Shown here: positions 28,832-49,645 of the stretch, piece by piece
Layout: every line of letters starts with the position of its first letter
How positions within the stretch are numbered: position 1 is the first letter of the stretch
Virus record (IMG/VR): IMGVR_UViG_3300033571_022897
Location: 119,412-183,411 of that record
Source of the DNA: a virus
Length of the DNA stretch: 64,000 bases
Strand: one strand, 5' to 3'
The notes under the pieces: model-generated
Databases searched by the model: none
What the model saw: the letters and a program-made list of their open reading frames with translations, nothing else
What the model was told of the DNA's origin: nothing
Position numbers and translations under genes: made by a program

Positions 28832-30547
28832 ATGAAGACTACTGTTTTACTCCCCGGAGGATTTAAACCTCCACACGTGGGACACCTACAACTCGCAAAC
28901 GCTTACGCCGCTGATCCCAGTGTTGAAAAAGTGGTGGTGCTTGTCGGTCCCTCTGAGCGAGACGGAATAGGCCGAAATCAATCTTTAGCCGTTTGGAAAC
29001 TTCTTCCTACTCACCCAAAAGTGAAAGTAGTCGCTTCTAATGTAGATAATCCCATGGAAGCAGCGTTTGAAACAGTGTTGAATTTGGACAAATCAGCAAC
29101 AGGACAATATGCAATGGGAGCTAGTTCAAAGGGATCTGACGCTGAAAGATCCAAGGTATTTGTTGACTATCTAAGAAAACACAAAACAGTTCCAACTCCT
29201 AGAGACAAAAAGATGACGCCGAAAGGCGTAAATCCAGTTTTACTTCCAATAGATACAAGACCCTTATTGTATAGAGGTCGTACAGACAAATTGAACGGAA
29301 CCGGTATAAGCGCTAGCGTGCTCAGAAAAGATCTTAAACTAGGCGACGTAAATAATTTTGCTACAAACTATCCAGGTGTTCCTAAGAACATCATACAGAA
29401 CATTTTCGACATACTGTCAAAAAAAAAGCTGAAAACTCCTACTAAAAAGTTAAGAGAATTTGCTGATATCTTGGAAAGTGTGGCGGTATTTAGAACAGCC
29501 ATAAGACAATTACTTACAGAGGGAGGAGCAGCTGGACACATGGCCCACCCATTTGATATCCCTACAGTGAAAAACGGATCTGATCTCATAAAAGTCTTTA
29601 AAGACACTGAGACGTATTTAAAGAATAACGAAGTGCCCCTAAAAATAGACGGCATAAATTCTTCCATTAGGCTTGTAAATACCGATAGTGGTAAAGAATT
29701 TGCGTTGGACCGTGGGTCTAACAAATCTCTGGATGTAAAGGGTGTAACAACTAAAGACTTAAAAGACAGGTTCGAAAAGGGTCATGGAATGATAAAGATC
29801 GGTGGCACCGTTCTTAAGATATTCAACGAGGCATTACCGTCTGCTAAATCTGCGTTAAGCAAATTGGGAATCATGAAGAATCCTAACATTATGCTTAACA
29901 TAGAATACGTAGAAGGAAAATCTAACGTGCAAAAGTACGAAAAGAATTTCATAGTGATACACAATTTGCTTGAAGTAAAACAGTCGAAAGAGGGAAAAAG
30001 GTCTATAGGTGAAATGTCTTATTCTAAAAACGATCTTCAAGCTTTGGTAGATGCTTTGAAACCGACAGCTAAAAAGTACGGATTCGAAGTGTTCAATGTG
30101 ATACCGGCAAAAATGGAAAAGAGTTCTAGTCTTTCAACCGAATTGGGTAAATCCTATACGGTGAATTACGCTAAAGGTAAGAAAGAAACCAAGACCCTGG
30201 ATCAGTGGTTGAAGGATGCTAAGAATACTAAAGGTCAGAAACTAAAATTGAAAGACGGTAAAACTGTCGATGCGTTGAGCAAACAAGTTTTCATGGCGAT
30301 AAACGGGGGTCAAAACATCCAAGACATGGTCGCTGATCCTAAAGACATGAAAATTGCTATAGATTCTTTTGTCATATATCTAGCAACAGAAAAATTAGGA
30401 GAAGCTATACTCAAATCAATGAGCTCTCCTTTAGGAGACGTTAACGATCAAGAGGGTATAGTGGTTAGAAACCCCAAGGTTTACGATAAACCCTATAAGA
30501 TCACTGGGTCTTTCATAACTAGGGGAATGCAATCACAATTCCGATAA
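28832..30547 (+). CDS. Bifunctional nucleotidyltransferase / ligase-like protein
   Basis: The protein has 571 aa. Residues 1-200 form a HIGH-superfamily nucleotidyltransferase domain: P-G-G-F-K-P-P-H-V-G-H (H15-x-G-H18) and I-S-A-S-V-L-R near residue 160, as in NMN, pantetheine-phosphate or cytidylyl transferases. A helix ending L-L-T-E230 is followed by G-G-A-A-G-H-M-A-H-P-F-D and a second domain (about 231-571). That domain has the covalent nucleotidyltransferase motif K271-I-D-G and an E541-G-I-V-V-R motif, characteristic of DNA/RNA ligases. A joined enzyme might charge a small molecule and also seal nucleic acid; substrates are unknown. The start is fixed by the domain beginning at residue 2. 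Confidence 0.75.
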   Translation: MKTTVLLPGGFKPPHVGHLQLANAYAADPSVEKVVVLVGPSERDGIGRNQSLAVWKLLPTHPKVKVVASNVDNPMEAAFETVLNLDKSATGQYAMGASSKGSDAERSKVFVDYLRKHKTVPTPRDKKMTPKGVNPVLLPIDTRPLLYRGRTDKLNGTGISASVLRKDLKLGDVNNFATNYPGVPKNIIQNIFDILSKKKLKTPTKKLREFADILESVAVFRTAIRQLLTEGGAAGHMAHPFDIPTVKNGSDLIKVFKDTETYLKNNEVPLKIDGINSSIRLVNTDSGKEFALDRGSNKSLDVKGVTTKDLKDRFEKGHGMIKIGGTVLKIFNEALPSAKSALSKLGIMKNPNIMLNIEYVEGKSNVQKYEKNFIVIHNLLEVKQSKEGKRSIGEMSYSKNDLQALVDALKPTAKKYGFEVFNVIPAKMEKSSSLSTELGKSYTVNYAKGKKETKTLDQWLKDAKNTKGQKLKLKDGKTVDALSKQVFMAINGGQNIQDMVADPKDMKIAIDSFVIYLATEKLGEAILKSMSSPLGDVNDQEGIVVRNPKVYDKPYKITGSFITRGMQSQFR

Positions 30548-30552
30548 TTCTC

Positions 30553-31458
30553 ATGAAGGATACACAAAAAATAGCGATAATAAGGGATTTCTTGAAGTAC
30601 TGCTATCATGAGCTTCAGATAAAAGAAGCACCTAAGATCCGTTTACACCATGACAATAAAGCAGTAAAAGATCAAGCGAGTTTCGGAGGCTATTATCCAG
30701 ACGGAAAAAGCATTCAAGTGTACATGAAAAACCGGAATTTGGCCGACGTTCTTAGAACTTTGGGTCATGAACTGGTTCATCACAGTCAACACGAAATAGC
30801 TGGTATAGACGTAATGGACGGAGCAACTGGATCAGATTATGAGAACGAAGCGAATAGCAAAGCTGGTGTTCTATTAAGGAATTACGGAAAGATGAATCCC
30901 ATGATTTACGAATCAGTAGTTTACATGGAGATGATAAACGAAGAAGACACAAAAGTCTATCAGATATACTGTGACATGGACGGGGTATTGTGCGATTTCG
31001 ATGCGCAATTTGAACACTATTTCGGAAACTCTCCGTCAGAATACAAAAAAGAAAAAGGCATACCAAGTTTTAAGAACGCAATAGACGAAGCAGGAAAAGA
31101 TTTTTGGGCTAACATGCCATGGACTTCAGCGGGAAAAAGACTGTGGGAAAAGATAGGAGAATACGGGGTGATAATACTCACGGACCCCTCTAATTTTACA
31201 GATTCTAAGAAGGGAAAACTTGAGTGGATAAATCTCCATCTTTCTCCAATGCCGAAAAGCGTGATATTCAAATCTACCGGTAAAAAACACGAGGTACTTC
31301 AGGGTATGAATCCGAATGACGTAGAAAAATGCGTTCTTATAGACGATTCAAAACTTAATACTCAACCTTGGGAATCTGCAGGAGGTATAGCATTTGAACA
31401 TAGCGATAACAATCCCACACATTATCAAGTAGATCTTCTAAAATTAAAAGACAAATAA
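30553..31458 (+). CDS. Metallopeptidase-like domain fused to HAD phosphatase
   Basis: The protein has 301 aa. Residues 1-125 contain an H72-E-L-V-H76 zinc-protease motif followed by a Glu-rich helix (D-Y-E-N-E-A-N), as in minimal SprT/IrrE-like metallopeptidases. Residues 135-301 are a HAD phosphatase: Y-C-D141-M-D143-G-V-L-C-D-F-D nucleophile motif, a later I-L-T-D-P-S, a Lys near I-F-K-S-T-G-K-K, and L-I-D-D-S. The DMDGVL type is closest to 5'(3')-deoxyribonucleotidases. I128-N-E130 lies exactly at the domain junction, fitting a prohead-protease site. It is 5 nt downstream of the nucleotidyltransferase-ligase gene, so co-expressed. Confidence 0.75.
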   Translation: MKDTQKIAIIRDFLKYCYHELQIKEAPKIRLHHDNKAVKDQASFGGYYPDGKSIQVYMKNRNLADVLRTLGHELVHHSQHEIAGIDVMDGATGSDYENEANSKAGVLLRNYGKMNPMIYESVVYMEMINEEDTKVYQIYCDMDGVLCDFDAQFEHYFGNSPSEYKKEKGIPSFKNAIDEAGKDFWANMPWTSAGKRLWEKIGEYGVIILTDPSNFTDSKKGKLEWINLHLSPMPKSVIFKSTGKKHEVLQGMNPNDVEKCVLIDDSKLNTQPWESAGGIAFEHSDNNPTHYQVDLLKLKDK

Positions 31459-31463
31459 AAGTC

Positions 31464-32055: not shown

Positions 32056-32718
32056 ATGCTGACAAGAAAACAACTTAGACTTCTCGAAAATAAACTCAAG
32101 AAGCACGCTGTAAAAGAGGGAGAACTCGATGGAGCCGTATCCCAGCTTTTTTTGGTTAAGAAGCCAGAAGATGGATGCGCAATGAAAGGAATGATTCAAC
32201 CCATAGATCCTCTAGTAGGTTTACAAGGATCTCAAATGGTACCAGACCAAATACACGGGGTGTATCCAGATAAAGAATTAGCGGCGACTGTTGCAGAGGG
32301 TTTATGCGCAGAATGCATGCAACGTGAACAAGCTCTCGAAGAGAAGAAGTATAAAGTCACTGAGAAGTTGAAAAAAGCGATCAATGTGCTTGAAAAGCAA
32401 CGTACCGAATCTATGAATCTCATAAAAGAGGAACCTGCAAAAGCTGGCGAACACAAGGACGTTGTAGCTAATATCACGTCTAAAATAGATGATTACATGA
32501 CTACTTTAGAGAAAGTGGCAAAGTCTGTTAAGCCTAAAGAAAAAGAAGAGAAGTCGAAAGACAAAAAAGATAAAGATAACCTAAAAGAAGATCTTGCCAA
32601 ACAAGATAATCTTGATAGTGCACAATACCAAAAAGAAAAAGATAAAAAGGGTTTCAAAAAATCAGATTGGAAATGGAATCCAAACCAAAGTCTTTATAAC
32701 AGAAACAGAAAAAAATGA
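32056..32718 (+). CDS. Lysine-rich unknown protein
   Basis: The protein has 220 aa. The N-terminus (R-K-Q-L-R-L-L-E-N-K-L-K-K-H) contains an L-L-E. A Cys-containing central part (D-G-C-A and L-C-A-E-C-M) might bind a metal. The last 70 residues are dominated by Lys/Asp/Glu and end K-W-N-P-N-Q-S-L-Y-N-R-N-R-K-K. Its stop overlaps the next start. A packaged internal head protein would fit the basic tail and the LxE, but that is inference. Confidence 0.5.
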   Translation: MLTRKQLRLLENKLKKHAVKEGELDGAVSQLFLVKKPEDGCAMKGMIQPIDPLVGLQGSQMVPDQIHGVYPDKELAATVAEGLCAECMQREQALEEKKYKVTEKLKKAINVLEKQRTESMNLIKEEPAKAGEHKDVVANITSKIDDYMTTLEKVAKSVKPKEKEEKSKDKKDKDNLKEDLAKQDNLDSAQYQKEKDKKGFKKSDWKWNPNQSLYNRNRKK

Positions 32719-33080
32719 TGGACCAGTTCGCTATATTCGTCGGTACTCTGATGCAGAGTCGCAATCAGGTACACATATACCATTTACAAACTGACTCTTA
32801 CGCTGCGCACGTAGCGCTTCAAGGGTATTACGATGGGATAGTGGGTTTAATAGACGGATTGGTAGAATCTTATCAAGGCAGATACGGAATACTTACCGGT
32901 TACAGAATGGCAGGAAACATAAAAGAAGATAACAATCCTATTATGTATTTCGAAGGTCTTTGTAAATTCGTAGAAACGCTGAGATCACAGATTCCCCAAG
33001 ACTCCTACATCCAGAATCAAGTTGACGAAGTGGTAGCTCTTATAGAGTCAACAAAGTATAAGCTGAAATTTCTGAAGTGA
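32715..33080 (+). CDS. Dps/ferritin-like helical protein
   Basis: The protein has 121 aa and is all-helical. The N-terminal helix has a Q-V-H-I-Y-H-L-Q-T pattern, then S-Y-A-A-H-V-A-L-Q-G-Y-Y-D-G-I-V-G-L-I-D. These are spaced like the His and Asp/Glu ligands of Dps/ferritin-like proteins. A similar small family is known to me from T4-like phages as 'Dps-like'. Dps proteins bind DNA and detoxify iron/peroxide. It overlaps both neighbours by a few bases. The assignment rests on pattern, not on a search. Confidence 0.5.
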   Translation: MMDQFAIFVGTLMQSRNQVHIYHLQTDSYAAHVALQGYYDGIVGLIDGLVESYQGRYGILTGYRMAGNIKEDNNPIMYFEGLCKFVETLRSQIPQDSYIQNQVDEVVALIESTKYKLKFLK

Positions 33081-33514
33081 TGAATACCACAGACATGATA
33101 CAATGTAAAAACTGTGGTTGGGAGTGGAAAGCTTCAGAGGGGGGCAAAGATAAGTACATTTGTCATAAGTGTGGAACAGATAACAGTCCCATAGAAGAAC
33201 TTCACGAAGGCCAATTTTGTCCGCAGTGTTTAATAGAGTATATACTAGAGAGGTGGAATAAAGGCATTCTTGAAGAGGCAGAATATCAAGGGAGGACAGT
33301 TCCGCTTGGTAAACCCATGGCGGGAGACGTAAAGAAATTTAAGGTCTATGTAAAAAATAAAAAAGGTAACGTTGTAAAGGTAAACTTCGGACAAAAGGGC
33401 GTAAAGATCAAGAAAAATAATCCCGGAAGGAGAAAAAATTTCAGAGCTCGTCATCGTTGTGATACCGCGAAAGACCGAACCACAGCAAGATACTGGTCTT
33501 GCAGAAAGTGGTAA
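33080..33514 (+). CDS. Zinc ribbon fused to a basic phage domain (R-x-R-H-x-C-type)
   Basis: The protein has 144 aa from the ATG at 33080; a GTG one codon earlier is less likely. Residues 9-31 form a zinc ribbon (C9-x2-C12, C28-x2-C31), with a further C-P-Q-C at 47-50. After G-I-L-E65 comes E-A-E-Y-Q-G-R, then K-K-F-K-V-Y-V-K-N, V-K-V-N-F-G, and the ending R-R-K-N-F-R-A-R-H-R-C ... A-R-Y-W-S-C. I know this ending from small virion-associated proteins of T4-like phages (DUF5872-like). The I-L-E/E junction fits a prohead-protease site separating the two parts. Confidence 0.65.
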   Translation: MNTTDMIQCKNCGWEWKASEGGKDKYICHKCGTDNSPIEELHEGQFCPQCLIEYILERWNKGILEEAEYQGRTVPLGKPMAGDVKKFKVYVKNKKGNVVKVNFGQKGVKIKKNNPGRRKNFRARHRCDTAKDRTTARYWSCRKW

Positions 33515-33555: not shown

Positions 33556-33783
33556 ATGGCAGTAAACACTCAAACAACCTGGAGAAAAACACTAGCGGGG
33601 AATCTAGCGACATTCTGTTTGATGATGGCGATGTTTTTCAACCCTCTTGGATTCGACGTGCTTTTCAAGACAGTGATGGACTTGACAAACAGCTATTGGA
33701 TTACGGATTTTATTTTCTATGGCGCTGCACTATTATTTCTTGGATTGTATATTTTATTGAAATCGTATTCTAAAAAACTATGA
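33556..33783 (+). CDS. Small two-helix membrane protein
   Basis: The protein has 75 aa with two hydrophobic segments (about residues 12-30 and 45-68, the latter W-I-T-D-F-I-F-Y-G-A-A-L-L-F-L-G-L-Y). I chose the ATG at 33556 (M-A-V-N-T-Q-T-T-W-R-K) over the in-frame ATG at 33526: related phage proteins, as I remember them, start near the W-R-K motif, and the extension adds an odd hydrophobic leader. The TGA overlaps the next ATG. A membrane role such as a superinfection or lysis accessory is possible but unproven. Confidence 0.6.
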   Translation: MAVNTQTTWRKTLAGNLATFCLMMAMFFNPLGFDVLFKTVMDLTNSYWITDFIFYGAALLFLGLYILLKSYSKKL

Positions 33784-36287
33784 AACACCTCAAAAAAGTG
33801 ATCGAAAAATTGATAACAGAAGAGTCCAAAGGGCTTTGGCACAATATAAATCAGAAAAAAGAAAAAGGCGAAAAACCTGCTAGAAAAGGCTCAGAAGCTT
33901 ATAAGAGTGCCGTTAAAGCCGCAAAAGAAATAAATAAAGCTACAAATGAAGAGGCGGCTAAATTCACAGACAAGCACGACGATAGTCCTAAATTGAAAGG
34001 CGATCAGAAGAAACTTCCTGATCAATTACAGGCACAAATAGTTAAAAAAGAGAATCACGAGGGCGGAGATCACGAGGTTTCCATGGCCAACAACAGTCTA
34101 AGATCTATAGTCAGCAACGCAAGTCAACTCATAGACAAAGTGGGGCAAGACGAAAAAGACATTCCCGCTTGGATACAGGATCACATAGCTAAGGCAGAAA
34201 ATTACATAGAACAGGCCAACAGTAACTATCACGAGTACGGAGAAGAAGATCACGAAGAATTGCCAACAGGCAACATAAAACTTATGAGCGCTCTTCAAGA
34301 GATGTACGACGAAGACGATGTTGAAGAGACACGGTTTCAAATCGGAGATATCGTTTTGGTAACTTATCCCAACCAATACAAAGGAGAACAAGGCGAAATC
34401 GTAGAACTCAGCAGAGACGGTTCGTTCCTGACATTGGAGATGCCCGATGGCAACACTGTTTCAATGCACTCTAGCGACGTAGAATTGGCAGACGACTCAG
34501 ATTTTGATGACAATTTTGGCTACGACGATGAAGGTTGGGACGACGGTATTCGCGCCAGTGACGACAAGCACCCCGGTGGTTTCCCTGGCATGACAGAGGC
34601 CAGAGACATCAATGACCCTGCTCGCATGGCCTCAGCAGCTCGTATACATGCATTCAAACAAAGACAAACACAACCAAAACAATCTCTCGCGCAATTCATG
34701 GGACAGAGAGATAATGATTTTGAAATAGAACAAGAGATAAAAGCCCTAAAGAGAGATCGCCTCCAGTTAATGAGAGACATGGAACAGGAAGCTGAACCTG
34801 AAGGCGGTCCGATAGCTGACGATTACGGAGACAGACTCAACCAAATAGATCAGCAGATAGCAGATCTTCAGGCTCAACTTATTGGTAAAAGTTTGGAAGA
34901 AGACACAATACAGGAGGCAAATGTACCTAGCAACATTTTAGAGTTCGCTAAAAGAAAGGGTGTCTCAGCTCTAGTCCAAAAAGTCGCTCGTTGGGCCGAG
35001 AAAGCCGGAAAAAGAATTGTCGGAGGTACAGCGATAGGTAAAAACTATAACGCTTTAGTGTTAGATCTAACGTATAATGGTGGTGAGATATACATAGACT
35101 GTTTCAAAAAACAAGTAAAAGTAAATGACCAATACGCAGACGATTACGAATCCTTTGTGTACGCCTTAGATCCTAGCAACTTCGACTCAGACGATGACTA
35201 TGAATATAACGACGGAATTACTGCAGACCCCGATCCACATCCAGCTGGTTTCCCCGGTATGACAGAGAAAACCGAAATCATAAAGAAGATCGTACAAAAA
35301 GAATCAAAGATGATTCAAGAGCGACATATCGCAAAGAATCTAGTCACAATGATTTTGAAAGAAGCTGAAGAAGTAAAGAAAGCGGATAACAAAAAACCCG
35401 TAGACAATAAAAAAAGTAGTAAAGGTCTAAATGCAGATCCTGAAGTCGTAAAAAAAGCGGCTAAAAACATGCCTAAACCCGATTCTACTATAGCTGTAAA
35501 AGGATTAAAAGACTTGGCTAAGAAAGCGGGTTTGGGTGACGCCGATGTTAAAGTGAATCCTGGAAATAAAGAAGTTCCCGTGGAATTGAATGTAAAGGGT
35601 GGTAAACAAGATCTAAAAGAAGAAGGCATAACGCTAACTCTAGTTCTACTTGCACCTACAATACTAGAATATCTAGGAAAACTCGTAAACTGGTTCACTA
35701 AAGACATAAAAGACGTTCTTAGATCTGGTTACGAAAAGGATGATTTACAGAAAATGAAAGACGAATTACTTACGGCTCAAGAAAAATATAAAGCGGCTGA
35801 TAAAGTAGATGATAGAAAAGGCGAAGAGAAATACCAAAAAGAGGTAGAACACTTAAAACACGAGATAGATAAAATAGAGGGCAACGTAGTAGGTAATTTT
35901 CTGCAATGGTTGGGCCATCTCACTCACAGCGTATATCTGTGGCTTAGTGTAAAACCACTCGTTGAAGGATTTGGACTTATAGTGCGAAAGAGGTACGGAT
36001 GGGATAAAGCACAGGGGAAATATAAAGAACAACCTAAATTTGAAACCATAGCAAGACTCGGATCAAGTAAACAGTTTAGACAATACATATCAGAGTTGAT
36101 ATATTGCGTATTCTGGGTGTTTGTAGCGGGTTCGCACATGTGGAAATCTCTGACTAATCCTGAGGTAGCCACAAAGATGGCAAAAGCCGTAGGAACCACT
36201 ACCGAAGTAGTAGGAGAAGCTCTTAATGCTGCTAAAGGATCTAGCAGTCTTAAAGGAGCGATAGAAGCCGCACTAAAAGCAGTTTAA
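33780..36287 (+). CDS. Large multidomain protein with CTS-like N-terminus
   Basis: The protein has 835 aa. The N-terminus, V-I-E-K-L-I-T-E14, is followed by S-K-G-L-W-H-N-I-N and a basic A-R-K-G-S-x-A-Y segment common in short phage proteins. A KOW/SH3-like strand set lies near residues 185-240 (F-Q-I-G-D-I-V-L-V-T-Y). Two copies of an acidic segment ending G-F-P-G-M-T-E occur near residues 245-275 and 465-500. A second I-L-K-E site lies near 525. The C-terminal third has three hydrophobic helices (e.g. L-I-Y-C-V-F-W-V-F-V-A-G). Possibly an internal head or ejected protein that can meet membranes; not assigned to a known family. Confidence 0.55.
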   Translation: MKHLKKVIEKLITEESKGLWHNINQKKEKGEKPARKGSEAYKSAVKAAKEINKATNEEAAKFTDKHDDSPKLKGDQKKLPDQLQAQIVKKENHEGGDHEVSMANNSLRSIVSNASQLIDKVGQDEKDIPAWIQDHIAKAENYIEQANSNYHEYGEEDHEELPTGNIKLMSALQEMYDEDDVEETRFQIGDIVLVTYPNQYKGEQGEIVELSRDGSFLTLEMPDGNTVSMHSSDVELADDSDFDDNFGYDDEGWDDGIRASDDKHPGGFPGMTEARDINDPARMASAARIHAFKQRQTQPKQSLAQFMGQRDNDFEIEQEIKALKRDRLQLMRDMEQEAEPEGGPIADDYGDRLNQIDQQIADLQAQLIGKSLEEDTIQEANVPSNILEFAKRKGVSALVQKVARWAEKAGKRIVGGTAIGKNYNALVLDLTYNGGEIYIDCFKKQVKVNDQYADDYESFVYALDPSNFDSDDDYEYNDGITADPDPHPAGFPGMTEKTEIIKKIVQKESKMIQERHIAKNLVTMILKEAEEVKKADNKKPVDNKKSSKGLNADPEVVKKAAKNMPKPDSTIAVKGLKDLAKKAGLGDADVKVNPGNKEVPVELNVKGGKQDLKEEGITLTLVLLAPTILEYLGKLVNWFTKDIKDVLRSGYEKDDLQKMKDELLTAQEKYKAADKVDDRKGEEKYQKEVEHLKHEIDKIEGNVVGNFLQWLGHLTHSVYLWLSVKPLVEGFGLIVRKRYGWDKAQGKYKEQPKFETIARLGSSKQFRQYISELIYCVFWVFVAGSHMWKSLTNPEVATKMAKAVGTTTEVVGEALNAAKGSSSLKGAIEAALKAV

Positions 36288-36288: not shown

Positions 36289-38217
36289 ATGTCAGATCAA
36301 GATAAACACATATTAGCAAGATTGATAAAAGAGCAGGATAACGAAAATCCTGCTTTGAGTGTAAAGAGCCCATTTGAAAGGGATCCAATGGGATTCATAT
36401 TGAGAAAGTATACCACTCTAAACGATGTACTAACGGAGCTCATGACATCTGGTTTTCAAGATTACTTAAACGCGATATTCATAGTTGCGCCTAAACCCAC
36501 GACATTTAAGATACTTCTTCACAATGGTCAATTCTTTTTCTTGACATTCATGGGTAAAGCGTATCAAGCCACAGTGCAAGGTACGGATTATTATTTGATG
36601 ACCATAGGAGAGAAAGAGCGTTGTATGCAAGCCATCGCAAGGCTACTAAGATTTGGAAGCCCGCTGAAAAATAAAGGCCCAGAGGGAGCTGAACAAAGTA
36701 CAGACTCAGGCACTTCAGATACCGGAGATACTGGAGGAGGCGGTGGAGGTGGCGAAGAGTTTAGCGGAGAAGGCGGTGGAGGTGAAGAGGGCGGAGGAGA
36801 AGGCGGAGGAGAAGGAGAAACCCTAACTGAATCAAATAAAAATTTTGGAAAACTAATACTTGAATCCCTCTTAAAAAAAAACTTAAATGAGGCCTCAGGA
36901 ATGAGAGGCAGAAAAACCGGTTCTGCTTTTACAGACGGAAAAAATACGTTGACATTAGACACAGAGCTATACGTAAAACCAAAAGATAAGCTAACTCCCC
37001 AAGAAAAGAAAGCTTTTTTTCAAAATCCCCAATTGGCGGATAAAAGACCTAACGTAGCGTTGGTAAAATTTAAAGACGACAAAGGCAAAATTGTCATATG
37101 GGGTAAATATGTTGATACAAATGTATCGTCTGCCGTTTCTTGGAAGAGCGATGGTACAGAATCACCGCAAGGCGAATATCAAAAATACGGATTCAGAAAC
37201 ATTAAAGCCGTATCAGGAATAAGTCCTTCTGAATTGATACGCACAGAGGAACCTTTGAGTTTGGAAGAGATAATAAGCACCGTCTCTAAGAATACAAAAG
37301 ATACAGCGCTCGTAAATGCCTTGAAAGACTTAGCCAAAGGAAATTTGCCCACTGTGGTAGGATACGCAGATAGGTTGTCAGCGGTCAGAGACTATTTTGG
37401 AGAAATCATGGCGCCTGTCGCTCTTTTGAGCGGAAAAAACGTACAAGGCAGCAAAGAAGCAGAAAGAGACGTTTTACAGGGCAAAACATTTAAAAGCGCC
37501 AAAGCAAAGTGGCCCATGTCAAAGACCACTGGACTTTTCGATAGTTACATAGTCACTTCAGCAGGAGAATACGGAGTAAGTAGCAAAGGCGCTAAAGGCG
37601 CGCCTGCCTCCTTATTGAATCTTAATGATGGAATAAAAAAAGCTGAAGAAGATAGAGAAGATACTACTAAATACATCGGATTTAAAAAAATAGTGGAGAT
37701 CGTTAAACAATACGATTCCATAGAAGGCATATTCGAATTGGCTAAGCTATATAATCCTTACAAAGGATACGATAAGAGCGACATTGACACTTTGAAAAAA
37801 GAGGTGATAGATTACAAAACCAAAGGAAAAACAAAGCCCGCGAACAACGCTTCAGATCTTGCTAAAAAATTGTGGAAAGAAAACAGAAGTAAATTCCAAG
37901 TAGAATCGGGAACATTTAACGTTGGCTACGCGATTCTTTCTGTGGTCGCTAAAGACGTGTGTAGAGTGATAAACGCAAAAGGCGCGTTATCAAAGAAAGG
38001 CGCCAATTTCTCAGATTCCGCTAAATACTTCATGAATAAATTGAATTTCATGCAGGTCTATTGCGACGTTAAAAAAGACGGAGATGACGTTAAAGTCAGC
38101 TCGTTCGATATCGTTTACACGAAATCTATAACGGGCCAAGTTGTGCTTTGGGCCGACAAGAATTATTTTGCGGGAGGCCCGCCAAAAGGAAAGCTTTCTT
38201 TCAAGGTGCCTCATTAA
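36289..38217 (+). CDS. Two-part protein joined by a Gly/Glu linker
   Basis: The protein has 642 aa. An N-terminal domain (1-130) is compact and hydrophobic. Then come a Gly/Glu low-complexity linker (about 140-178), an L-I-L-E / L-N-E segment (about 185-202), and a large C-terminal domain (about 205-642). That domain has G-V-S-S-K-G-A-K-G-A-P-A-S-L, a pattern I associate with unnamed phage head-region proteins, and a Lys-rich helical part. The stop of the preceding gene is 1 nt away. Function unknown. The LxE sites at the linker end would release the C-terminal domain if cut by the prohead protease. Confidence 0.55.
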   Translation: MSDQDKHILARLIKEQDNENPALSVKSPFERDPMGFILRKYTTLNDVLTELMTSGFQDYLNAIFIVAPKPTTFKILLHNGQFFFLTFMGKAYQATVQGTDYYLMTIGEKERCMQAIARLLRFGSPLKNKGPEGAEQSTDSGTSDTGDTGGGGGGGEEFSGEGGGGEEGGGEGGGEGETLTESNKNFGKLILESLLKKNLNEASGMRGRKTGSAFTDGKNTLTLDTELYVKPKDKLTPQEKKAFFQNPQLADKRPNVALVKFKDDKGKIVIWGKYVDTNVSSAVSWKSDGTESPQGEYQKYGFRNIKAVSGISPSELIRTEEPLSLEEIISTVSKNTKDTALVNALKDLAKGNLPTVVGYADRLSAVRDYFGEIMAPVALLSGKNVQGSKEAERDVLQGKTFKSAKAKWPMSKTTGLFDSYIVTSAGEYGVSSKGAKGAPASLLNLNDGIKKAEEDREDTTKYIGFKKIVEIVKQYDSIEGIFELAKLYNPYKGYDKSDIDTLKKEVIDYKTKGKTKPANNASDLAKKLWKENRSKFQVESGTFNVGYAILSVVAKDVCRVINAKGALSKKGANFSDSAKYFMNKLNFMQVYCDVKKDGDDVKVSSFDIVYTKSITGQVVLWADKNYFAGGPPKGKLSFKVPH

Positions 38218-38282: not shown

Positions 38283-38750
38283 ATGAACATATTCTACGTA
38301 CAATCCGACCCCGTTCAAGCGGCCAAGGACCTCACAGATCAACACATACTTAAAATGGGCATAGAGTCAGCACAGATGCTGGCCACAGCCCACTGGATGA
38401 ATGGATCTTCTGCGCCCTACAAGAAAGCACACGTCAATCACCCATCAACCAAGTGGACACGTGAGTCCATACAGCACTATCGCTGGTTAGCCAAGCATGC
38501 TAAGGCCATACTACAGGAATTCACAGCGCGTTACGGCAACGTGCACAAGACGGAACAGATTGTGGACTGGCTCATAGACAACGAACCCAACATCGAAGAC
38601 CGAGGATTCGTACCGCCTCCTCAATGTATGCCTGAGGAGTATAAAAATCCTGACACTATAGCTGCGTATCGTAACTTCTACATTAAAGACAAACTGGGAG
38701 TCAAGAAGCTTAAATATGGCAAGTGTGCCCCTCCTCCATGGATTGCGTAA
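38283..38750 (+). CDS. Conserved phage protein of unknown function
   Basis: The protein has 155 aa. Its motif set is one I recognise from a widespread unnamed phage family: an opening M-N-I-F-Y-V-Q-x-D-P, then H-I-L-K-M-G-I-E-S-A-Q-M-L-A-T-A-H, N-H-P-S-T-K-W-T-R-E-S, and a C-terminal M-P-E-E-Y-K ... Y-R-N-F-Y-I. Several His, Asp and Glu residues are conserved, so an enzyme is plausible. Codon use is richer in C/G endings than in the preceding genes. A 65-nt gap precedes it, with a T-rich stretch (TTTTTTTGTACTTTG) that could be a weak host-type promoter. Confidence 0.6.
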   Translation: MNIFYVQSDPVQAAKDLTDQHILKMGIESAQMLATAHWMNGSSAPYKKAHVNHPSTKWTRESIQHYRWLAKHAKAILQEFTARYGNVHKTEQIVDWLIDNEPNIEDRGFVPPPQCMPEEYKNPDTIAAYRNFYIKDKLGVKKLKYGKCAPPPWIA

Positions 38751-42338: not shown

Positions 42339-43202
42339 ATGACGATAAAGCACAGCAAATATCGTAACACTGCTATTCTTTTTGAATTGCTAGTGAGACA
42401 AACAACAGCAGATCTGTTGCAAAACAGAGACTCCAGGGCGGTGAAGATACTGAGAAAACACTTCACGAACACAGAATTGGGTAAAGAATACGCCCTTTAC
42501 ACTTCCTTTAATACTATAGGAAGATTATCAGAATCAAAAGCCGAGATGTTTATCAACACTGTGTTGGAGCAAAGGAAGAAACTTAACGAAGATAGGCTTA
42601 AAAAAGAGAAATTTAACCTCATAAAGGAAATAAAGAACGTTTATGATATAGACGACTTCTTTAAAGCTAAGATAGACAACTATAAGACTTACGCCTCTGT
42701 ATATACGCTCTTTGAATCCCAGAATAACAAGGCTTTTGTTGATAGTAAACAACTACTATTAAACAAAATAAACATAGTTGAACACATCGTCGGAGAAAAT
42801 GCGAGCCAAAAACCGGCTTCTGCTACACTAGTGGAAGAATTCATGAAGGAAGACAAAGAGGTTCGTTTGTTGGCTTATAAACTTTTGGTTGAGAAGTTCA
42901 ACGAAAAGTACTCGGATCTTTCAAAGAAACAAAAAGCTGTTTTAAAGGAGTACATAAACAACATATCTGAAACCGAGAATCTCAAAGAGTTCATGAATAG
43001 AACCATAAAAGAGATAAAGTCTGAGCTCAGTAACATAAGCACCAAGATAAAAGATCCGGTGGTCAAGATAAAGCTTAACGAAACTATTAAGTTGTTGCAT
43101 CCTATAAACAACAATCAGTTCGTTAAAGACGAAATAATAACAAGCGTTTTGCAATACTTGGATCTAATAGACGAGTTAAAACGTGTCTCTAATGAAAAAT
43201 AA
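42339..43202 (+). CDS. Head-module helical protein, unknown
   Basis: The protein has 287 aa, almost entirely charged helices (E-R-V-like K/E/L patterns), with an N-terminus of K-H-S-K-Y-R-N-T-A-I-L-F-E-L-L-V-R-Q. It sits between the portal and prohead genes, where T4 has gp67/gp68/gp21. A prohead core or assembly protein would fit, but no family signature is recognised. It overlaps the next gene by 11 nt. Confidence 0.5.
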   Translation: MTIKHSKYRNTAILFELLVRQTTADLLQNRDSRAVKILRKHFTNTELGKEYALYTSFNTIGRLSESKAEMFINTVLEQRKKLNEDRLKKEKFNLIKEIKNVYDIDDFFKAKIDNYKTYASVYTLFESQNNKAFVDSKQLLLNKINIVEHIVGENASQKPASATLVEEFMKEDKEVRLLAYKLLVEKFNEKYSDLSKKQKAVLKEYINNISETENLKEFMNRTIKEIKSELSNISTKIKDPVVKIKLNETIKLLHPINNNQFVKDEIITSVLQYLDLIDELKRVSNEK

Positions 43203-44277: not shown

Positions 44278-44691
44278 ATGAACAACGACATAAAAAGAAT
44301 GCAGAAGCTCGCAGGAATTTTGAGCGAAGGATTTTTTGGATTCGGTGGATCTAAAAAAGACGGAGATAAAAAAGATTCCGGAAAAGAATCCGATGCCCTT
44401 GGAGGAAAAGATGTTAATCCCGATCAATTAGCTGTAGATAAGAAATATCGTTTCTACGGCTATCCCCAAAAGGAAAGGTCATCAGCCGCCAGTAAAAGTC
44501 CAGAAAAAGCTAAGAGCGAAGCATACTACTTAGCCAATGTCATCTTCGTAGCCAAAGATCCTGATTACGATGAATATAAATTCAAAATAGATACGGTTTA
44601 TGATAGAAGACAGGGTGTGGAACCTGATAGAGGAACAAATATTGTTCTCAAAAACAACGAAGTTAAAGCGCTAATCAAAACCGCAGGATAA
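44278..44691 (+). CDS. Small head-module protein with CTS-like leader
   Basis: The protein has 137 aa. The first 17 residues, ending K-L-A-G-I-L-S-E17, match the form of T4 capsid-targeting sequences: a short amphipathic leader ending (L/I)-x-E, cut by the prohead protease. A Gly/Lys/Ser-rich linker and a small domain (about 45-137, K-Y-R-F-Y-G-Y ... D-T-V-Y-D-R-R) follow. The mature domain may be packaged inside the capsid. Function unknown. Confidence 0.55.
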   Translation: MNNDIKRMQKLAGILSEGFFGFGGSKKDGDKKDSGKESDALGGKDVNPDQLAVDKKYRFYGYPQKERSSAASKSPEKAKSEAYYLANVIFVAKDPDYDEYKFKIDTVYDRRQGVEPDRGTNIVLKNNEVKALIKTAG

Positions 44692-44847: not shown

Positions 44848-45867
44848 ATGAAAAACATAACGCACTTATACCAACAGTTGAACGAGGGCAAGATCAGCAA
44901 GGACTTCTTCATGAAGAACGCTCGCATGCAATTCCCGCAGTTCATCAGTCCCACACTATCATTCAGGGACACTGTTAATGTTTTAAAGGGTAAGAGACTT
45001 ATCCAAGAATCTCACACCATGACGGTGGATCAAGTCATAGACAGGTTAAATCCTTATCATTTTAGAAGGGGCGTACAAAAAGAACTCGCAAAGATACAGG
45101 ATCCGACAAGAGATGATGTTAGAAAGGTGAATGAGAAAGTCGCAAAGAGACTTCAAAAAGATCCTATGACCTACGAGGATCAAATCTTCGCAAACGCAAA
45201 AGATATAGAAAAAAAGGACGATAAACTACAAACTGGTGAAGTTAAAGTCGGCACTCAAAGCGTTGACAAGAACAACGCCATGAAAGTTAAGAAGAAGCTT
45301 GAGTCCGCTAACACGCGCGCCACTAAGAAAGAGAACAAAAAAGGCAAACCCCGCGGAGTTAAGGTCATGACTTACAAGGCTAAGACCGCAAAAGGCATTT
45401 CCGAGACAATGCCCGCAACAGGTAAAGAGAAAGTACTTAAGGTTCTTCACGAAAATATGTACGCTTCTGGCATTGCAACTCCACACAATTGGCACAGTGG
45501 AAAAGAAGTTAACACACCAAAAGGATTTGGTGTAGTTAAAGGGATTCACGGCGGCACTCTTGAGATCGAACTCAAAGACGGTGCGTTGGTAGAATACCAG
45601 ATGAACATAGTTGAAAAGTACATGGATAAGGCCAAACAAGCAGATAACGCTTCTAACCACGGTCAAGAAAAAGAGAACAACATTAAGGAAGTAACCAATT
45701 CTTTAAAAAATTTCGTTAAAAAATTGAAGGAAGTCATTCTTACCCAAACTAGTGGAGGTAAGAAGCAGATTGCAGTTGCAAAAAACCAAAAAAGCATATC
45801 TACATTACAAGGTGCTGGTTGGAAAGTGGAACCTGGAACGCAAGACGCTGAAATTCAAGGAAATTAA
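44848..45867 (+). CDS. Prohead-region protein, unknown
   Basis: The protein has 339 aa. The leader H-L-Y-Q-Q-L-N-E13 is followed by G-K-I-S-K-D-F-F, again of the LxE type. The middle is very basic (K-K-E-N-K-K-G-K-P-R-G-V-K-V). A small beta domain near residues 210-255 (G-V-V-K-G-I-H-G-G-T-L-E-I-E-L) precedes a Lys/Gln-rich tail. It is directly upstream of the protease gene. Likely a prohead core component; not assigned. Confidence 0.5.
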   Translation: MKNITHLYQQLNEGKISKDFFMKNARMQFPQFISPTLSFRDTVNVLKGKRLIQESHTMTVDQVIDRLNPYHFRRGVQKELAKIQDPTRDDVRKVNEKVAKRLQKDPMTYEDQIFANAKDIEKKDDKLQTGEVKVGTQSVDKNNAMKVKKKLESANTRATKKENKKGKPRGVKVMTYKAKTAKGISETMPATGKEKVLKVLHENMYASGIATPHNWHSGKEVNTPKGFGVVKGIHGGTLEIELKDGALVEYQMNIVEKYMDKAKQADNASNHGQEKENNIKEVTNSLKNFVKKLKEVILTQTSGGKKQIAVAKNQKSISTLQGAGWKVEPGTQDAEIQGN

Positions 45868-45868: not shown

Positions 45869-46498
45869 ATGGCCAAAGAACTTCTGATAGAGTATTCGAT
45901 ATTCAAACCCCAAATGGGATTAAAAGAGGGGTTTCGAGCTTCCAACGGAAACATGGTCGTTAGCGGACAGGTGCAAGCGTGCGACAAGCCCAACGCAAAC
46001 AAAAGAATATACCCATACGATACTCTAAAGAAACAGGTCGACCTATATTTAGACGGTCCGATAAAAGAAAACAGGGCATTGGGTGAACTCGATCACCCTG
46101 AATCCTCAGTGATAAACTTAAAAAACGTTTCTCACATCATAAAGAACCTTTGGTGGGAGGATAAAGATCTATACGGTACAGTGGAAGTTTTACCCACTCC
46201 CTCTGGAAACATACTCAAAGAGTTGTTCAAAAACAACATAACTGTTGGAATATCTTCGAGGGCACAGGGAAGCACCAGTCCCATAGGCGAAGGACTCGTT
46301 AAAGTAGAAGACGATCTAGAGATCATTTGTTGGGACTTCGTATCCCAGCCCTCTACTTACGGTGCTTATATGAAACCTGTTTCTGGAATAAACGAATCCA
46401 TAGATTACAATCAACGAATAGTAAATAACTACAGCAGAGCGAACGATCTGATGCGCAACATAATTTGCGAAATGTCGGGTGTTTGTTGCGTGAAGTAA
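45869..46498 (+). CDS. 21: Prohead core protease, gp21-like
   Basis: The protein has 209 aa from the ATG at 45869, 1 nt after the preceding stop; an in-frame ATG 39 codons upstream only adds residues overlapping the previous gene. Family motifs: N-A-N-K-R-I-Y-P near residue 45, G-E-L-D-H-P-E (catalytic His region, about 73-79), and V-G-I-S-S-R-A-Q-G-S (catalytic Ser region, about 124-133). This serine protease of the T4 gp21/herpesvirus assemblin type cleaves scaffold and capsid proteins at (L/I)-x-E sites. Its own N-terminus reads M-A-K-E-L-L-I-E8, a plausible self-cleavage site. Length matches T4 gp21 (212 aa). Confidence 0.9.
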   Translation: MAKELLIEYSIFKPQMGLKEGFRASNGNMVVSGQVQACDKPNANKRIYPYDTLKKQVDLYLDGPIKENRALGELDHPESSVINLKNVSHIIKNLWWEDKDLYGTVEVLPTPSGNILKELFKNNITVGISSRAQGSTSPIGEGLVKVEDDLEIICWDFVSQPSTYGAYMKPVSGINESIDYNQRIVNNYSRANDLMRNIICEMSGVCCVK

Positions 46499-46519: not shown

Positions 46520-46528
46520 ATATTTATG
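46520..46528 (+). promoter_or_regulatory. ATATTTATG box, candidate late promoter of scaffold/capsid genes
   Basis: The plus strand reads CATATTTATG 89 nt before the scaffold ATG. Unlike most other copies, it leaves room for a long leader. Confidence 0.45.
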
Positions 46529-46535
46529 GGTAAAT

Positions 46536-46601: not shown

Positions 46602-46617
46602 TTAACGCACAAACAAG

Positions 46618-47898
46618 ATGGAAAAGAACATCTATCAACAAGCGATTCTTGACGCGAAAGCTATTCGTGCCAGTGCCATTGCGAACGCTAAAGCTAGTTT
46701 GCAAGAGGCTATCGAGCCGAAGATTCAAGAAATGATGCGTCTTAGACTTTCCGAAGAACTTGAAGAGGAGCTCGAAGAGGGCAACTACGAAGAGGGAATG
46801 AAACACGGGGAGATGGAAGAAGACGCTGTGAACGAAGCTTCTCTTGACGAGATCCTCGCCGAACTTGACGCCATGGAAGAAGGCAAAAAAGACATGGAAG
46901 AAGGTAAGGAGGAAATGGAAGAGGGCAAAGACGAAGAAAAAGTTGTAAAAGAAGCCGAAGACGACGAAGAGCCAGCTGACGATGCCGAAGGCGAAGGTGA
47001 AGGCGATGATGCCGAAGCCGATGAGGAAGGCGGAGAAGAAGGCGAAGAAGGCGGCGAAGGCGAAGAAGGTGGTGAAGAGGAAGTCGACGATGACACCAAA
47101 GTGATTGACATCACTCTAGGTGACCTCAAGCAGATCCTACAATCCGTAATGGACGGTGAGGCTCAGGGCGAAGAGGACTTAGAGGCCGATATCGACATGC
47201 CGGGTGGAGAAGAAGGAGGCGAAGGCGAAGAAGCCGGCGCTGAAGCTCCCGAAGGCGGTGAAGGCGAAGAGGTTTCTCTTGACGAGATCCTTGCAGAACT
47301 CGAGAACGAAGGCTACGCTGGCGGAGCACAAACTGACAAAGCCGGCTCAGCAAAATTCCAAGAGGCTAAGGGTCACTCTGGGGGTGTATACACCAAAGGA
47401 GTTAAAGGCGTAAAAGAGGCCAAGAAAGATGACGAAGCGAAAGTCGAAGAGGGCAAGGGTCATTCCGGCGGCGTCTACACAAAAGGCGTTAAAGGTATGA
47501 AAGAAGCCAAGAAAGAGGACGAGAAGGATAAGAAAGAACTCGATGAGCTGAAGAAAGAGCTTAAAGAGGCCAAAAATGCTATCAAAGTCCTCAGCGAAAA
47601 CATCAAAGAAGTCAACCTTCTGAATGCTAAGCTGCTTTTCATGAACAAGATTTTCAAAGCTAAGTCTCTTAACGAGTCTCAAAAAGTAAAAGTGATCAAA
47701 GCTTTTGATCGCGCTGGTTCTGTAAAAGAGGTGAAAAACGTGTACGAAACTTTGAAAGAGTCTTTGAATACAAAGTCTACGATTAAAGAATCTATCGGTT
47801 TCGCTTCGAAGCCCGCGGGTGTCGCCCCGGCAAAAGGCCCGATCGTTGAATCGGAAGCTTTTGTATCGCGTTGGCAAAAAATCGCTGGCATAAAGTAA
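46618..47898 (+). CDS. 22: Prohead scaffold protein, gp22-like
   Basis: The protein has 426 aa and is extremely acidic in the middle (runs of Glu/Gly/Asp, about 60-230), with helical ends, as expected of the T4 gp22 scaffold that fills the prohead and is later digested. The gene lies between the protease and the capsid gene, exactly as in T4. Two near-identical copies of a basic segment (G-H-S-G-G-V-Y-T-K-G-V-K-G) occur about 38 residues apart near residues 252 and 290. The C-terminus ends W-Q-K-I-A-G-I-K, possibly the capsid-binding end. It is longer than T4 gp22 (269 aa) because of the acidic insert. Confidence 0.8.
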   Translation: MEKNIYQQAILDAKAIRASAIANAKASLQEAIEPKIQEMMRLRLSEELEEELEEGNYEEGMKHGEMEEDAVNEASLDEILAELDAMEEGKKDMEEGKEEMEEGKDEEKVVKEAEDDEEPADDAEGEGEGDDAEADEEGGEEGEEGGEGEEGGEEEVDDDTKVIDITLGDLKQILQSVMDGEAQGEEDLEADIDMPGGEEGGEGEEAGAEAPEGGEGEEVSLDEILAELENEGYAGGAQTDKAGSAKFQEAKGHSGGVYTKGVKGVKEAKKDDEAKVEEGKGHSGGVYTKGVKGMKEAKKEDEKDKKELDELKKELKEAKNAIKVLSENIKEVNLLNAKLLFMNKIFKAKSLNESQKVKVIKAFDRAGSVKEVKNVYETLKESLNTKSTIKESIGFASKPAGVAPAKGPIVESEAFVSRWQKIAGIK

Positions 47899-47923
47899 TA
47901 AAAACAAAACCAATCACAAAACA

Positions 47924-49645
47924 ATGGCAAACTTAGTTCAAAACCTATTGTCCGAATCTGCCCAAACCGCTTTTGCTGATCAGAATGGCGTAGCCTCAAG
48001 ATTAGCTAAGAAGTGGCAGAAGTCCGGACTCCTCGAGGGTCTTCAGGACTACGATAAGACTGGCATGGCTGTCCTTTTGGAAAACCAAGCTAAGCAACTC
48101 GTAGTTGAAAACTCTCAAACCAACGGCGGCTTAAACGCTGGTGGTGCAACATTTACAGCAGGCACTGGCGAACAGTGGGCTGGTGTAGCTCTTCCGCTCG
48201 TGCGCAAGATCCTTGGTCAAATCTCTGCAAAAGAGTTCGTTAGCGTTCAGCCTATGAACCTTCCTGCGGGTCTGGTATTCTACCTCGACTTCCAGTACGG
48301 AGACACCAAGCGTCCTTTCACTACTGGAGATTCTCTCTACGGTAATGCAACCGCAAACTTCGGTAACGACAAAGCCGGTGCCCTTTACGGCGCTGGAAGA
48401 TTCGGATACTCGTTGAACCAGTTCTCTGCATCCCTGTCGTCATCCAACCTTACGGCTTTCGGATCGGCTTCAGCTACATGGGACGAAGTTCGTTTCGATA
48501 CAGCTTATTCAGCTTCTATCGTAAACAAGAGCATCACCAAATTCACAGTTCCTACTGCTTCTCTGTCTGCTTCTTTTAATGCACTCGGTGTAAGAGCGTT
48601 CATATTTACCACGGCTTCTTCGCCTGTAGGTACAACTAACGCAACTATCGGTGTCGCAGATAACCTACAGCAGTTCACTAACATCTCTGCTTCCGTTGGT
48701 GGGGAATACATCGAATTCTTCATTAACAAAGCCATCGGCGGTGGTGGTAGCCACGCAAGTTCCGGCGTAAACAACACTTACGCTGTGTTCTTCAACAAGT
48801 CTACCGACTTCAACACTCGTGGTGATTTCGAAGATCGCACTGGCAACCCTTCCGTACCGAACCAAGCTTCCGCAACATCTATCGTTATCCCAGAGATCAA
48901 CGTACAGATGAAGTCTCAGACTGTGTCTGCAAAGACCCGCAAACTGAAGGCTCAGTGGACGCCTGAATTCGCTCAGGACCTGAACGCTTACCACTCTCTC
49001 GACGCAGAAGCCGAATTGACCGGTATCCTCTCCGAGCACATCTCTCTTGAGATCGACCTCGAAGTTCTGGATATGTTGATCTCTCAGGCCCCTACAGTTG
49101 AGACTTGGTCCGCTACCGTTGGTAAACAAATCGACGCGGCAGGTACAGCGTTTAACCTGAACACAAGCGGTGTATACTACACCCAGATGACCTGGTTCCA
49201 GACTCTCGGCATCAAACTGCAGAAAGTTAGCAACATCATCCACCAGAGAACTCTGCGTGGCGGTGCTAACTTCATGGTTGTTTCTCCGACCGTTGCTACC
49301 ATACTCGAGTCCATCCCTGGATTCGCTGCTGATACAGACGGCGCAGCTGACAACATGAAGTACGCTTTCGGTGTGCAGAAAATCGGCGCTCTGAACAGCC
49401 GCTACAAAGTGTACAAAAACCCTTACATGACTGAGAACGTAATCCTTCTTGGTCTGAAAGGCTCCGCATTCCTAGAGTGTGGTGCAGTGTACGCCCCGTA
49501 CGTGCCGCTGATCATGACGCCTCTTGTGTACGATCCTAATACCTTCACCCCTCGTAAAGGTATCATGACTCGCTACGCAATGACGATGCTGCGTCCTGAA
49601 TTCTACGGCTTAGTACTCGTATCAGATCTGACTACAGCTCTCTGA
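47924..49645 (+). CDS. 23: Major capsid protein, gp23-like
   Basis: The protein has 573 aa and matches the T4 gp23 HK97-fold capsid family: M-A-N-L-V-Q-N-L-L-S-E at the start, S-A-K-E-F-V-S-V-Q-P-M near residue 105, K-A-R/Q-W-T-P-E-F-A-Q-D-L in the second half, and R-G-G-A-N-F-M-V-V-S-P-T-V near 445. The N-terminal ~60 residues form the pro-region: L-L-E53 and L-L-S-E11 are candidate prohead-protease sites (T4 cuts after residue 65). The gene uses many ATC, AAC, TTC and GGT codons, unlike its ATA-rich neighbours. That fits very high expression. It is followed by a strong terminator. Confidence 0.93.
   Translation: MANLVQNLLSESAQTAFADQNGVASRLAKKWQKSGLLEGLQDYDKTGMAVLLENQAKQLVVENSQTNGGLNAGGATFTAGTGEQWAGVALPLVRKILGQISAKEFVSVQPMNLPAGLVFYLDFQYGDTKRPFTTGDSLYGNATANFGNDKAGALYGAGRFGYSLNQFSASLSSSNLTAFGSASATWDEVRFDTAYSASIVNKSITKFTVPTASLSASFNALGVRAFIFTTASSPVGTTNATIGVADNLQQFTNISASVGGEYIEFFINKAIGGGGSHASSGVNNTYAVFFNKSTDFNTRGDFEDRTGNPSVPNQASATSIVIPEINVQMKSQTVSAKTRKLKAQWTPEFAQDLNAYHSLDAEAELTGILSEHISLEIDLEVLDMLISQAPTVETWSATVGKQIDAAGTAFNLNTSGVYYTQMTWFQTLGIKLQKVSNIIHQRTLRGGANFMVVSPTVATILESIPGFAADTDGAADNMKYAFGVQKIGALNSRYKVYKNPYMTENVILLGLKGSAFLECGAVYAPYVPLIMTPLVYDPNTFTPRKGIMTRYAMTMLRPEFYGLVLVSDLTTAL

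What the first reader, a model, noticed from the sequence alone, without database searches (positions are those of the whole stretch)
28832..47924. (L/I)-x-E sites at N-termini and domain junctions: possible set of packaged, protease-trimmed enzymes
T4 gp21 cuts after (L/I)-x-E, and T4 internal proteins enter the capsid through short leaders ending this way. Here such sites occur at residues 14 (33780), 17 (44278), 13 (44848), 8 (protease), and 11 and 53 (capsid). They also occur exactly between domains at E230 of the nucleotidyltransferase-ligase, E130 of the metallopeptidase-HAD, E65 of the zinc-ribbon protein, and at the Gly/Glu linker end of the 642-aa protein. This would release a ligase-like, a HAD and other domains inside the head for delivery with the DNA. 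Caveat: the motif is short and also occurs in a baseplate-operon protein (L-L-S-E at 17457-17873).
Basis: partly seen in the sequence, partly recalled or inferred. Interest (0 to 1): 0.65.

Follow-up and report, generated by a model that had tools for sequence, protein, structure and literature searches.

The report
Scaffold-mimicking leaders load phage head cargo
Many unrelated proteins of this large T4-related phage begin with a few interchangeable short leader peptides that end in a head-protease cut site, one type copying the tail of the phage's own scaffold protein, which suggests they are loaded into the virus head, trimmed there, and injected with the DNA.

Summary
The window is the head module of a T4-related phage (S77 prohead protease, gp23 capsid). 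(L/I)xE at residues 6-21 is enriched: 100 of 335 families against 47±6 expected, at exactly that spacing. It is absent from this phage's first 80 kb and weak in random viral contigs. The leaders fall into recurring classes on unrelated proteins: MIKLxDLLxE (45 families in an IMG/VR scan) and RMQKLAGIxxE. The second is the C-terminal tail of the scaffold, whose own tail follows an (L/I/V)xE site. Domain-junction sites are conserved where upstream sequence is not: the ligase domain follows E in 35 of 36 distinct contexts, and stand-alone versions place it behind a 10-13-aa leader. Protease E8 and capsid E53 are rejected; capsid E62 (T4 E65 equivalent) and protease E20 replace them. Best explanation: T4-style capsid-targeting leaders, one class mimicking the scaffold tail, recruit a large, partly polyprotein effector set into the prohead, where the protease cuts it free. 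Cleavage, packaging and injection are inferred; nothing biochemical was tested. New variant of a known kind.

The parts
28832..30547 (+). 571-aa nucleotidyltransferase (NMNAT/cytidylyltransferase-like) fused to ligase-like covalent nucleotidyltransferase
   Evidence: phrog_395 cytidyltransferase E 2.2e-4; KxDG/EGIVVR/KITG motifs conserved in relatives
29513..29521 (+). LTE230 junction cut site (LLTE|GGAAGHMAHPFD)
   Evidence: E at -1 in 35/36 distinct contexts, L/I/V at -3 in 36/36; stand-alone versions begin 10-13 aa upstream
29522..30547 (+). ligase-like domain expected to be released
   Evidence: AF2 pLDDT 90.8; best Foldseek hits T4 Rnl1/Rnl2 but weak
30553..31458 (+). 301-aa metallopeptidase-HAD fusion
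   Evidence: phrog_2643 deoxyribonucleotidase E 1.5e-24, phrog_87 metallo-protease E 1.7e-3
30934..30942 (+). INE130 junction site before the HAD domain
   Evidence: HAD alone behind leaders in immuto (LLLEE|) and L335 (MIKLIDLLNE|)
33077..33514 (+). zinc-ribbon protein; junction ILEE|AEYQGRTV
   Evidence: [LI]xE before A[EK]Y in all 17 distinct contexts, including MIKLGDILTE-led stand-alone forms
33780..33821 (+). leader MKHLKKVIEKLITE| of the 835-aa protein
   Evidence: L014 homolog MDKVLKHLIIE|ES; parts of this protein are separate leader-bearing genes in relatives
36289..36333 (+). leader MSDQDKHILARLIKE| of the 642-aa protein
   Evidence: LxE leader in all aligned homologs
36823..36891 (+). 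LTE181| + internal leader-like SNKNFGKLILESLLKKNLNE201|
   Evidence: most relatives have LTE|SIILKALIKE|A here, near-copy of their N-terminal DILKAILLE|A
44278..44328 (+). leader MNNDIKRMQKLAGILSE|, scaffold-tail type
   Evidence: RMQKLAGI motif nearly confined to scaffold C-termini and leaders
44848..44886 (+). leader MKNITHLYQQLNE| of 339-aa protein between portal and protease
   Evidence: IQE13 in immuto, LKE12 in L102
45869..46498 (+). S77 prohead protease (gp21 type); LKE20 at 45920-45928 is the likelier propeptide site than LIE8
   Evidence: PF03420 E 2.7e-22; E8 not conserved, INE/LTE near 18-20 in homologs
46618..47898 (+). scaffold protein (gp22 position), acidic
   Evidence: directly upstream of capsid gene; 69/75 relatives end in [LIV][AS]G[ILVM] plus up to 4 residues
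47842..47895 (+). IVE411| + scaffold C-terminal tail SEAFVSRWQKIAGIK
   Evidence: [LIV]xE 5-7 residues before the tail motif in 54/59 relatives
47924..49645 (+). major capsid protein gp23; sites E11 (47948-47956) and E62 (48101-48109)
   Evidence: PF07068 E 7.7e-78; E11-type LxE in 76/80, E62 [LIV]xE in 79/80
11..40 (-). leader MIKLMDILLE| of a 245-aa protein that continues left of the window
   Evidence: same leader class on 45 families elsewhere
32056..32088 (+). candidate leader MLTRKQLRLLE|
   Evidence: sequence only; homologs not examined
17457..17873 (-). possible further leader-bearing protein in baseplate operon (MSKLDALRKLIREEIRSAIREE...)
   Evidence: resembles a third leader class; unresolved

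Best explanation
The late region encodes a set of head-internal cargo proteins marked by short N-terminal leaders ending in (L/I/V)xE. The leaders act like T4 capsid-targeting sequences: they dock cargo to the growing prohead, and the S77 protease then cuts after the E, freeing the mature protein inside the head for delivery with the DNA. One leader class (RMQKLAGI-x-x-E) is the scaffold's own C-terminal tail placed at the N-terminus of cargo, so it probably docks where the scaffold tail docks, most likely on the capsid protein. Another class (MIKLxxLLxE) resembles the cleaved N-termini of the capsid proteins. Fused proteins (NMNAT-ligase, metallopeptidase-HAD, the 642-aa protein) keep leader or cut-site segments at their domain junctions and would be cut there into separate enzymes. 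Shown here: motif enrichment, leader sharing, leader swapping, junction conservation, scaffold-tail identity, link to the S77 protease. Inferred: docking, cleavage, packaging, injection, and the enzymes' roles (for example RNA repair or NAD metabolism against host defence).
For: N-terminal LxE enrichment with exact spacing and position, absent from the first 80 kb; random viral contigs 0.157 per protein against 0.413 in capsid-gene loci. The class A regular expression: 58 N-terminal hits in 12 families, none internal, none in the reversed control (the expression is anchored at the start, so the reversed control is the informative one); separate scan: 85 proteins, 45 families. Tail motif: 73 hits in 687,457 aa = 60 C-terminal, 11 at N-termini of other families, 2 elsewhere; DNA scan for MQKLAGI: 65 C-terminal, 12 N-terminal, 5 mid, 3 of those followed by LxE. 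Scaffold tail preceded by [LIV]xE in 54/59. Leader swap within one family (L073 MIKLSTLLKE|, L074 ARLQKLAGLLKE|, L064 FQKYLNE|, L072 FQKFINE|). Ligase junction E in 35/36 contexts. Internal leader MKLKDLIVE|GG in L062, near-identical to free N-terminal leaders such as MIKLKDILLE. S77 protease in 18/29 class A records against 1/22 random records, p 2e-5. T4 positive controls MKTYQEFIAE| and MAKINELLRE|; T4 CTS literature PMC9026906. Herpesvirus scaffold tails bind the capsid protein and are cut off (PMC12474303).
Against: No protein-level data for any phage of this group. LxE is short; TerL and 42339 carry it without being plausible cargo. 11 of 29 class A records have no S77 match, including two long ones (125 and 207 kb); most are fragments, but a leader without this protease is not excluded. 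T4 itself shows only weak proteome-wide enrichment (z 2.8), so enrichment depends on many cargo genes. Junction E could partly serve folding. Cyanophage scaffolds have different tails, so the tail-mimic class may be confined to this lineage.
Confidence: 0.77

Rival explanations
1. The leaders are real prohead-targeting signals cut by the protease, but the internal LxE sites are structural and the fused proteins stay whole in the virion.
For: Some junction sites are followed by tightly conserved domain starts (GGxxGHMAHPFD), so E could belong to the fold.
Against: The same domain begins directly behind N-terminal leaders in L079-L085; upstream sequence is otherwise variable; complete leader copies sit at junctions in L062, L067 and the 36289 family.
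Confidence: 0.2
2. The leader-bearing proteins are assembly (core) factors that are degraded or expelled during maturation, like T4 gp67/gp68, and are not delivered to the host.
For: Several lie between portal and capsid genes, as T4 core genes do.
Against: Cargo bodies include enzyme-like domains (Zeta-toxin-like kinase, ART-PolyVal, HAD, metallopeptidase, ligase-like), differ between phages, and many lie outside the head module.
Confidence: 0.12
3. N-terminal LxE is a by-product of amphipathic N-terminal helices rich in L, I and E; no protease is involved.
For: LxE is short and also appears in non-cargo proteins such as TerL.
Against: Shuffling the same N-termini gives half the observed count and only the one-residue spacing stands out strongly; LxD, LxK, LxN and LxS are barely or not enriched; the class A leaders are near-identical strings on unrelated proteins.
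Confidence: 0.04

Closest known systems
T4 internal proteins and Alt with capsid-targeting sequences (Mullaney and Black 1996, reviewed in PMC9026906)
   Same: 10-19-aa N-terminal propeptides ending L/I-x-E, shared by unrelated proteins, a gp21-type protease in the same head gene cluster
   Different: several leader classes instead of one, one matching the scaffold tail; many more cargo families; fused cargo with internal leaders; sequence unlike MKTYQEFIAE in the two main classes
Polyvalent proteins of phages and plasmids (Iyer et al. 2017, PMC5512222)
   Same: multi-domain proteins with disparate enzymes, including ART-PolyVal and MPTase-PolyVal domains, encoded with head genes and proposed to be injected
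   Different: here a loading and cutting signal is visible in the sequence; processing is predicted by the prohead protease at LxE, not by a built-in peptidase
Herpesvirus scaffold with C-terminal capsid-binding tail and M site (PMC12474303)
   Same: scaffold - protease site - short conserved C-terminal tail
   Different: the same tail is also found at the front of other proteins; no tail-capsid binding has been shown in this phage group
P1 DarB N-terminal capsid targeting sequence (PMC9024508)
   Same: short N-terminus sufficient to take a protein into the head
   Different: no LxE processing reported in the passages read, no scaffold identified in P1, one protein rather than a family of leaders

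Membership tests
T4-type capsid-targeting sequence (CTS) | N-terminal propeptide of about 10-20 aa ending in L/I-x-E | tested here: met
   peak at residues 9-17
T4-type capsid-targeting sequence (CTS) | genome encodes a gp21-type (S77) prohead protease and gp23-type capsid | tested here: met
   PF03420 E 2.7e-22, PF07068 E 7.7e-78
T4-type capsid-targeting sequence (CTS) | same leader on otherwise unrelated proteins | tested here: met
   45 families with MIKLxDLLxE; tail-type leader on about 9 families
T4-type capsid-targeting sequence (CTS) | leader sufficient for head packaging and removed there | not testable with these tools
   needs virion proteomics or reporter fusions
Polyvalent proteins | several disparate enzymatic domains in one polypeptide | tested here: met
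   NMNAT-ligase, metallopeptidase-HAD; immuto 907-aa protein
Polyvalent proteins | delivered with the DNA at infection | not testable with these tools
   inferred from late/head gene context only
Herpes-type scaffold tail | conserved C-terminal tail directly after a maturation cut site | tested here: met
   69/75 scaffolds end in the tail motif; [LIV]xE 5-7 aa before it in 54/59; that the site is cut is inferred
Herpes-type scaffold tail | tail binds the major capsid protein | not testable with these tools
   inferred by analogy
Covalent nucleotidyltransferase (RNA/DNA ligase) superfamily | KxDG, motif IV EGxV and motif V lysine | tested here: met
   K[IFT]DG in all 24 relatives listed, EG[IV]V in most, K[IL]TG in nearly all; K41, D43, G44, E311, G312, K326 invariant in A2
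Covalent nucleotidyltransferase (RNA/DNA ligase) superfamily | fold match to solved ligases | tested here: inconclusive
   best hit T4 Rnl1 E 2e-3, prob 0.90, but TM 0.25; no PDB sequence match

The most novel reading that the evidence does not exclude
Cargo loading by scaffold-tail mimicry: the capsid-binding tail plus its protease site is a portable module, used at the C-terminus of the scaffold and moved to the N-terminus (occasionally the C-terminus or an internal junction) of many unrelated effectors, so that this phage lineage assembles a modular, partly polyprotein arsenal inside its head.
Probability: 0.6. Interest if true: 0.85.

Novelty: new variant of a known kind. Interest (0 to 1): 0.74.

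Why it matters
Which proteins a large phage carries in its head is normally learned only by proteomics; here a leader read from sequence would name them across a whole lineage of environmental phages, most of whose cargo has no annotation. It suggests a concrete docking site for capsid-targeting sequences (the scaffold-tail site) and shows multi-enzyme phage proteins with cut sites built into their junctions. It also gives short tags for loading proteins into phage heads.

Tried and rejected
Protease E8 as an autocleavage site: not conserved. Capsid E53: conserved fold segment, not the T4 cut position. LxE in TerL N-terminus and in 42339-43202 (FELLVRQ) as leaders: conserved in place but not plausible cargo. 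Ligase junction exceptions L047-L049 were traced to an in-frame homing-endonuclease-like insertion right after LLTE|GGAA. Looking for the tail motif in T4 (none) and cyanophages (different tails). PDB sequence search with the ligase alignment found nothing. Paper searches found no report of scaffold-tail-like leaders in the held open-access library, which is incomplete. Two regular-expression leader classes (C and E) were too loose or too rare to use. The second structure prediction was not used.

Full report
What the window is. The window is bases 119412-183411 of a 183,411-base virus record. It holds a T4-like head module: TerL, portal, S77 protease (PF03420 E 2.7e-22), a scaffold-like acidic protein, and gp23 capsid (PF07068 E 7.7e-78). 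The nearest cultured relatives by capsid are Flavobacterium phage immuto and Microcystis phage Mel-JY01, about 50% identical.

Checking the observation. The quoted sites are present. In the late block 12 of 23 genes have LxE at residues 6-24 against 4.0±1.7 in shuffled proteins. Across 160 related loci, grouped into 335 families by the sequence after residue 25, 100 families have LxE at residues 6-21 against 46.6±5.7 in interior windows (maximum 66 in 2000 draws) and 50.5±5.9 when the N-termini themselves are shuffled. Spacings 0, 3 and 4 show nothing notable; spacing 2 is raised (z 4.1), at least partly because many leaders read LLxE. LxD, LxK, LxN and LxS stay near 1. Position matters: the excess lies at residues 9-17. 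In this phage's first 80 kb there is no excess (16 against 14.6); from 84 kb to the end there is (35 against 18.9). Random viral contigs: 0.157 of proteins; capsid-gene loci: 0.413.

Leaders are shared, not just motif-like. Outside the window the same phage has MIKLMSLLNE, MIKLIDLLKE, MIKLVDLLNE, MIKLTTILKE and, at the window's left edge on the minus strand, MIKLMDILLE on five unrelated proteins. Pfam on 46 of them finds Zeta toxin/AAA_33, ART-PolyVal, Tox-ART-HYD1, MPTase-PolyVal, DUF6782 metallopeptidase and HAD, one member each; most have no match. Records of at least 30 kb carrying this leader have an S77 protease in 18 of 29 cases, random records in 1 of 22 (p 2e-5).

The scaffold connection. 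The window scaffold ends ...PIVE|SEAFVSRWQKIAGIK, immuto's ...IISE|VSEQVSRWQKLAGIIK, Mel-JY01's ...ILNE|SNNVVERMKKLAGIVK. The leader of 44278 is MNNDIKRMQKLAGILSE|, of immuto gene 188 MKKQILSEQFRRMQKLAGIITE|. In 687,457 residues of related loci the motif occurs 73 times: 60 at C-termini, 11 at N-termini of non-scaffold families, 2 elsewhere. A DNA scan of IMG/VR for MQKLAGI gave 65 C-terminal, 12 N-terminal and 5 internal matches; 3 of the internal ones are also followed by an LxE. Of 152 C-terminal cases over all loci only 3 were found beside a gene other than the capsid gene, two of them preceded by an (I/M)NE site. The scaffold tail follows an [LIV]xE site at a nearly fixed distance in 54 of 59. 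So tail plus cut site looks like one module used at either end of a protein. Herpesvirus scaffolds, whose C-terminal tail binds the capsid protein and is cut off by a protease, offer the analogy for what the tail does (PMC12474303); T4 internal proteins co-purify with the scaffold gp22 (PMC9026906).

Swapping. One family carries MIKLSTLLKE|, ARLQKLAGLLKE|, FQKYLNE| and FQKFINE| in different phages, ahead of a related body. That is good evidence that the leaders are equivalent.

Domain junctions. The ligase-like domain starts GGxxGHMAHPFD directly after (L/I/V)xE in 35 of 36 distinct contexts, while other upstream positions are more variable; the exception is an insertion next to an intact LLTE|GGAA. 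Stand-alone versions begin MITFKQFLLE|GG, MLSFLQFLAE|GG, MTTFKEFYQLISE|GG. In L062 the junction reads MKLKDLIVE|GG, a whole leader. The HAD domain stands alone behind LLLEE| in immuto and behind MIKLIDLLNE| in L335. The zinc-ribbon C-domain follows [LI]xE in every distinct context. In the 642-aa family the linker ends LTE| and is followed, in most relatives, by SIILKALIKE|A, a near-copy of the N-terminal DILKAILLE|A.

Corrections. Protease E8 is not conserved; a site near residue 20 is. Capsid E53 belongs to a conserved fold segment; E62 aligns with T4 E65 and is [LIV]xE in 79 of 80 relatives, and the E11-type site in 76 of 80. TerL and 42339 show that LxE alone does not make a leader.

Enzymes. 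The ligase domain has KxDG, EGIVVR and KITG motifs, a confident model (pLDDT 90.8) and a consistent but weak set of fold matches led by T4 RNA ligases. A role in RNA repair or NAD metabolism against host defence is plausible from the families involved, and is inference.

What remains open. No virion data exist in what I could read. Two long class A records lack an S77 match. Gene calls outside annotated records are simple longest-ORF calls. The two leader classes were defined on this phage and its relatives and then tested on a larger collection, so the counts for those scans describe reach, not discovery significance.

Noticed in passing
L047 8618-11092 (also L048, L049): Ligase gene interrupted immediately after LLTE|GGAA by a roughly 250-aa in-frame homing-endonuclease-like stretch, after which GGAAGHMAHPFD resumes: an in-frame intron or insertion at the cleavage junction.
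   Followed up: partly
window 38283-38750: Pyrimidine dimer DNA glycosylase family (PF03013, E 2.4e-8) between the cargo cluster and TerL, without a leader.
   Followed up: no
G000 113824-115123 (left of window): ParB-like nuclease-type protein (ParBc_2 E 0.011) with an LxE leader; its C-terminus KQIKETLQRRAGIKL is repeated as the N-terminus of the next gene.
   Followed up: no
L535 (484-kb uncultured phage LR756508), 3493-5814 and 20727-26606: Runs of adjacent small genes with a third leader class (M-x-K-x-x-L-R-x-I-I-x-E-E) and MRLKEILLE-type leaders; its scaffold ends RMQKLADIS.
   Followed up: partly
L190 12686-13351, L253 9121-9978, L186 10376-10609: Non-scaffold proteins carrying the RMQKLAGIIK-type tail at their C-terminus, two of them preceded by an (I/M)NE site: possible C-terminal targeting.
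   Followed up: partly
L533 (P-HM2) and L534 (C48C1): Cyanophage-type scaffolds end in a different tail (SMNAYVQQLAKRL, SMNNYLDALRKTSKK), after VVSE in P-HM2; whether cyanophages have leaders mimicking that tail was not tested.
   Followed up: no
   Followed up: no
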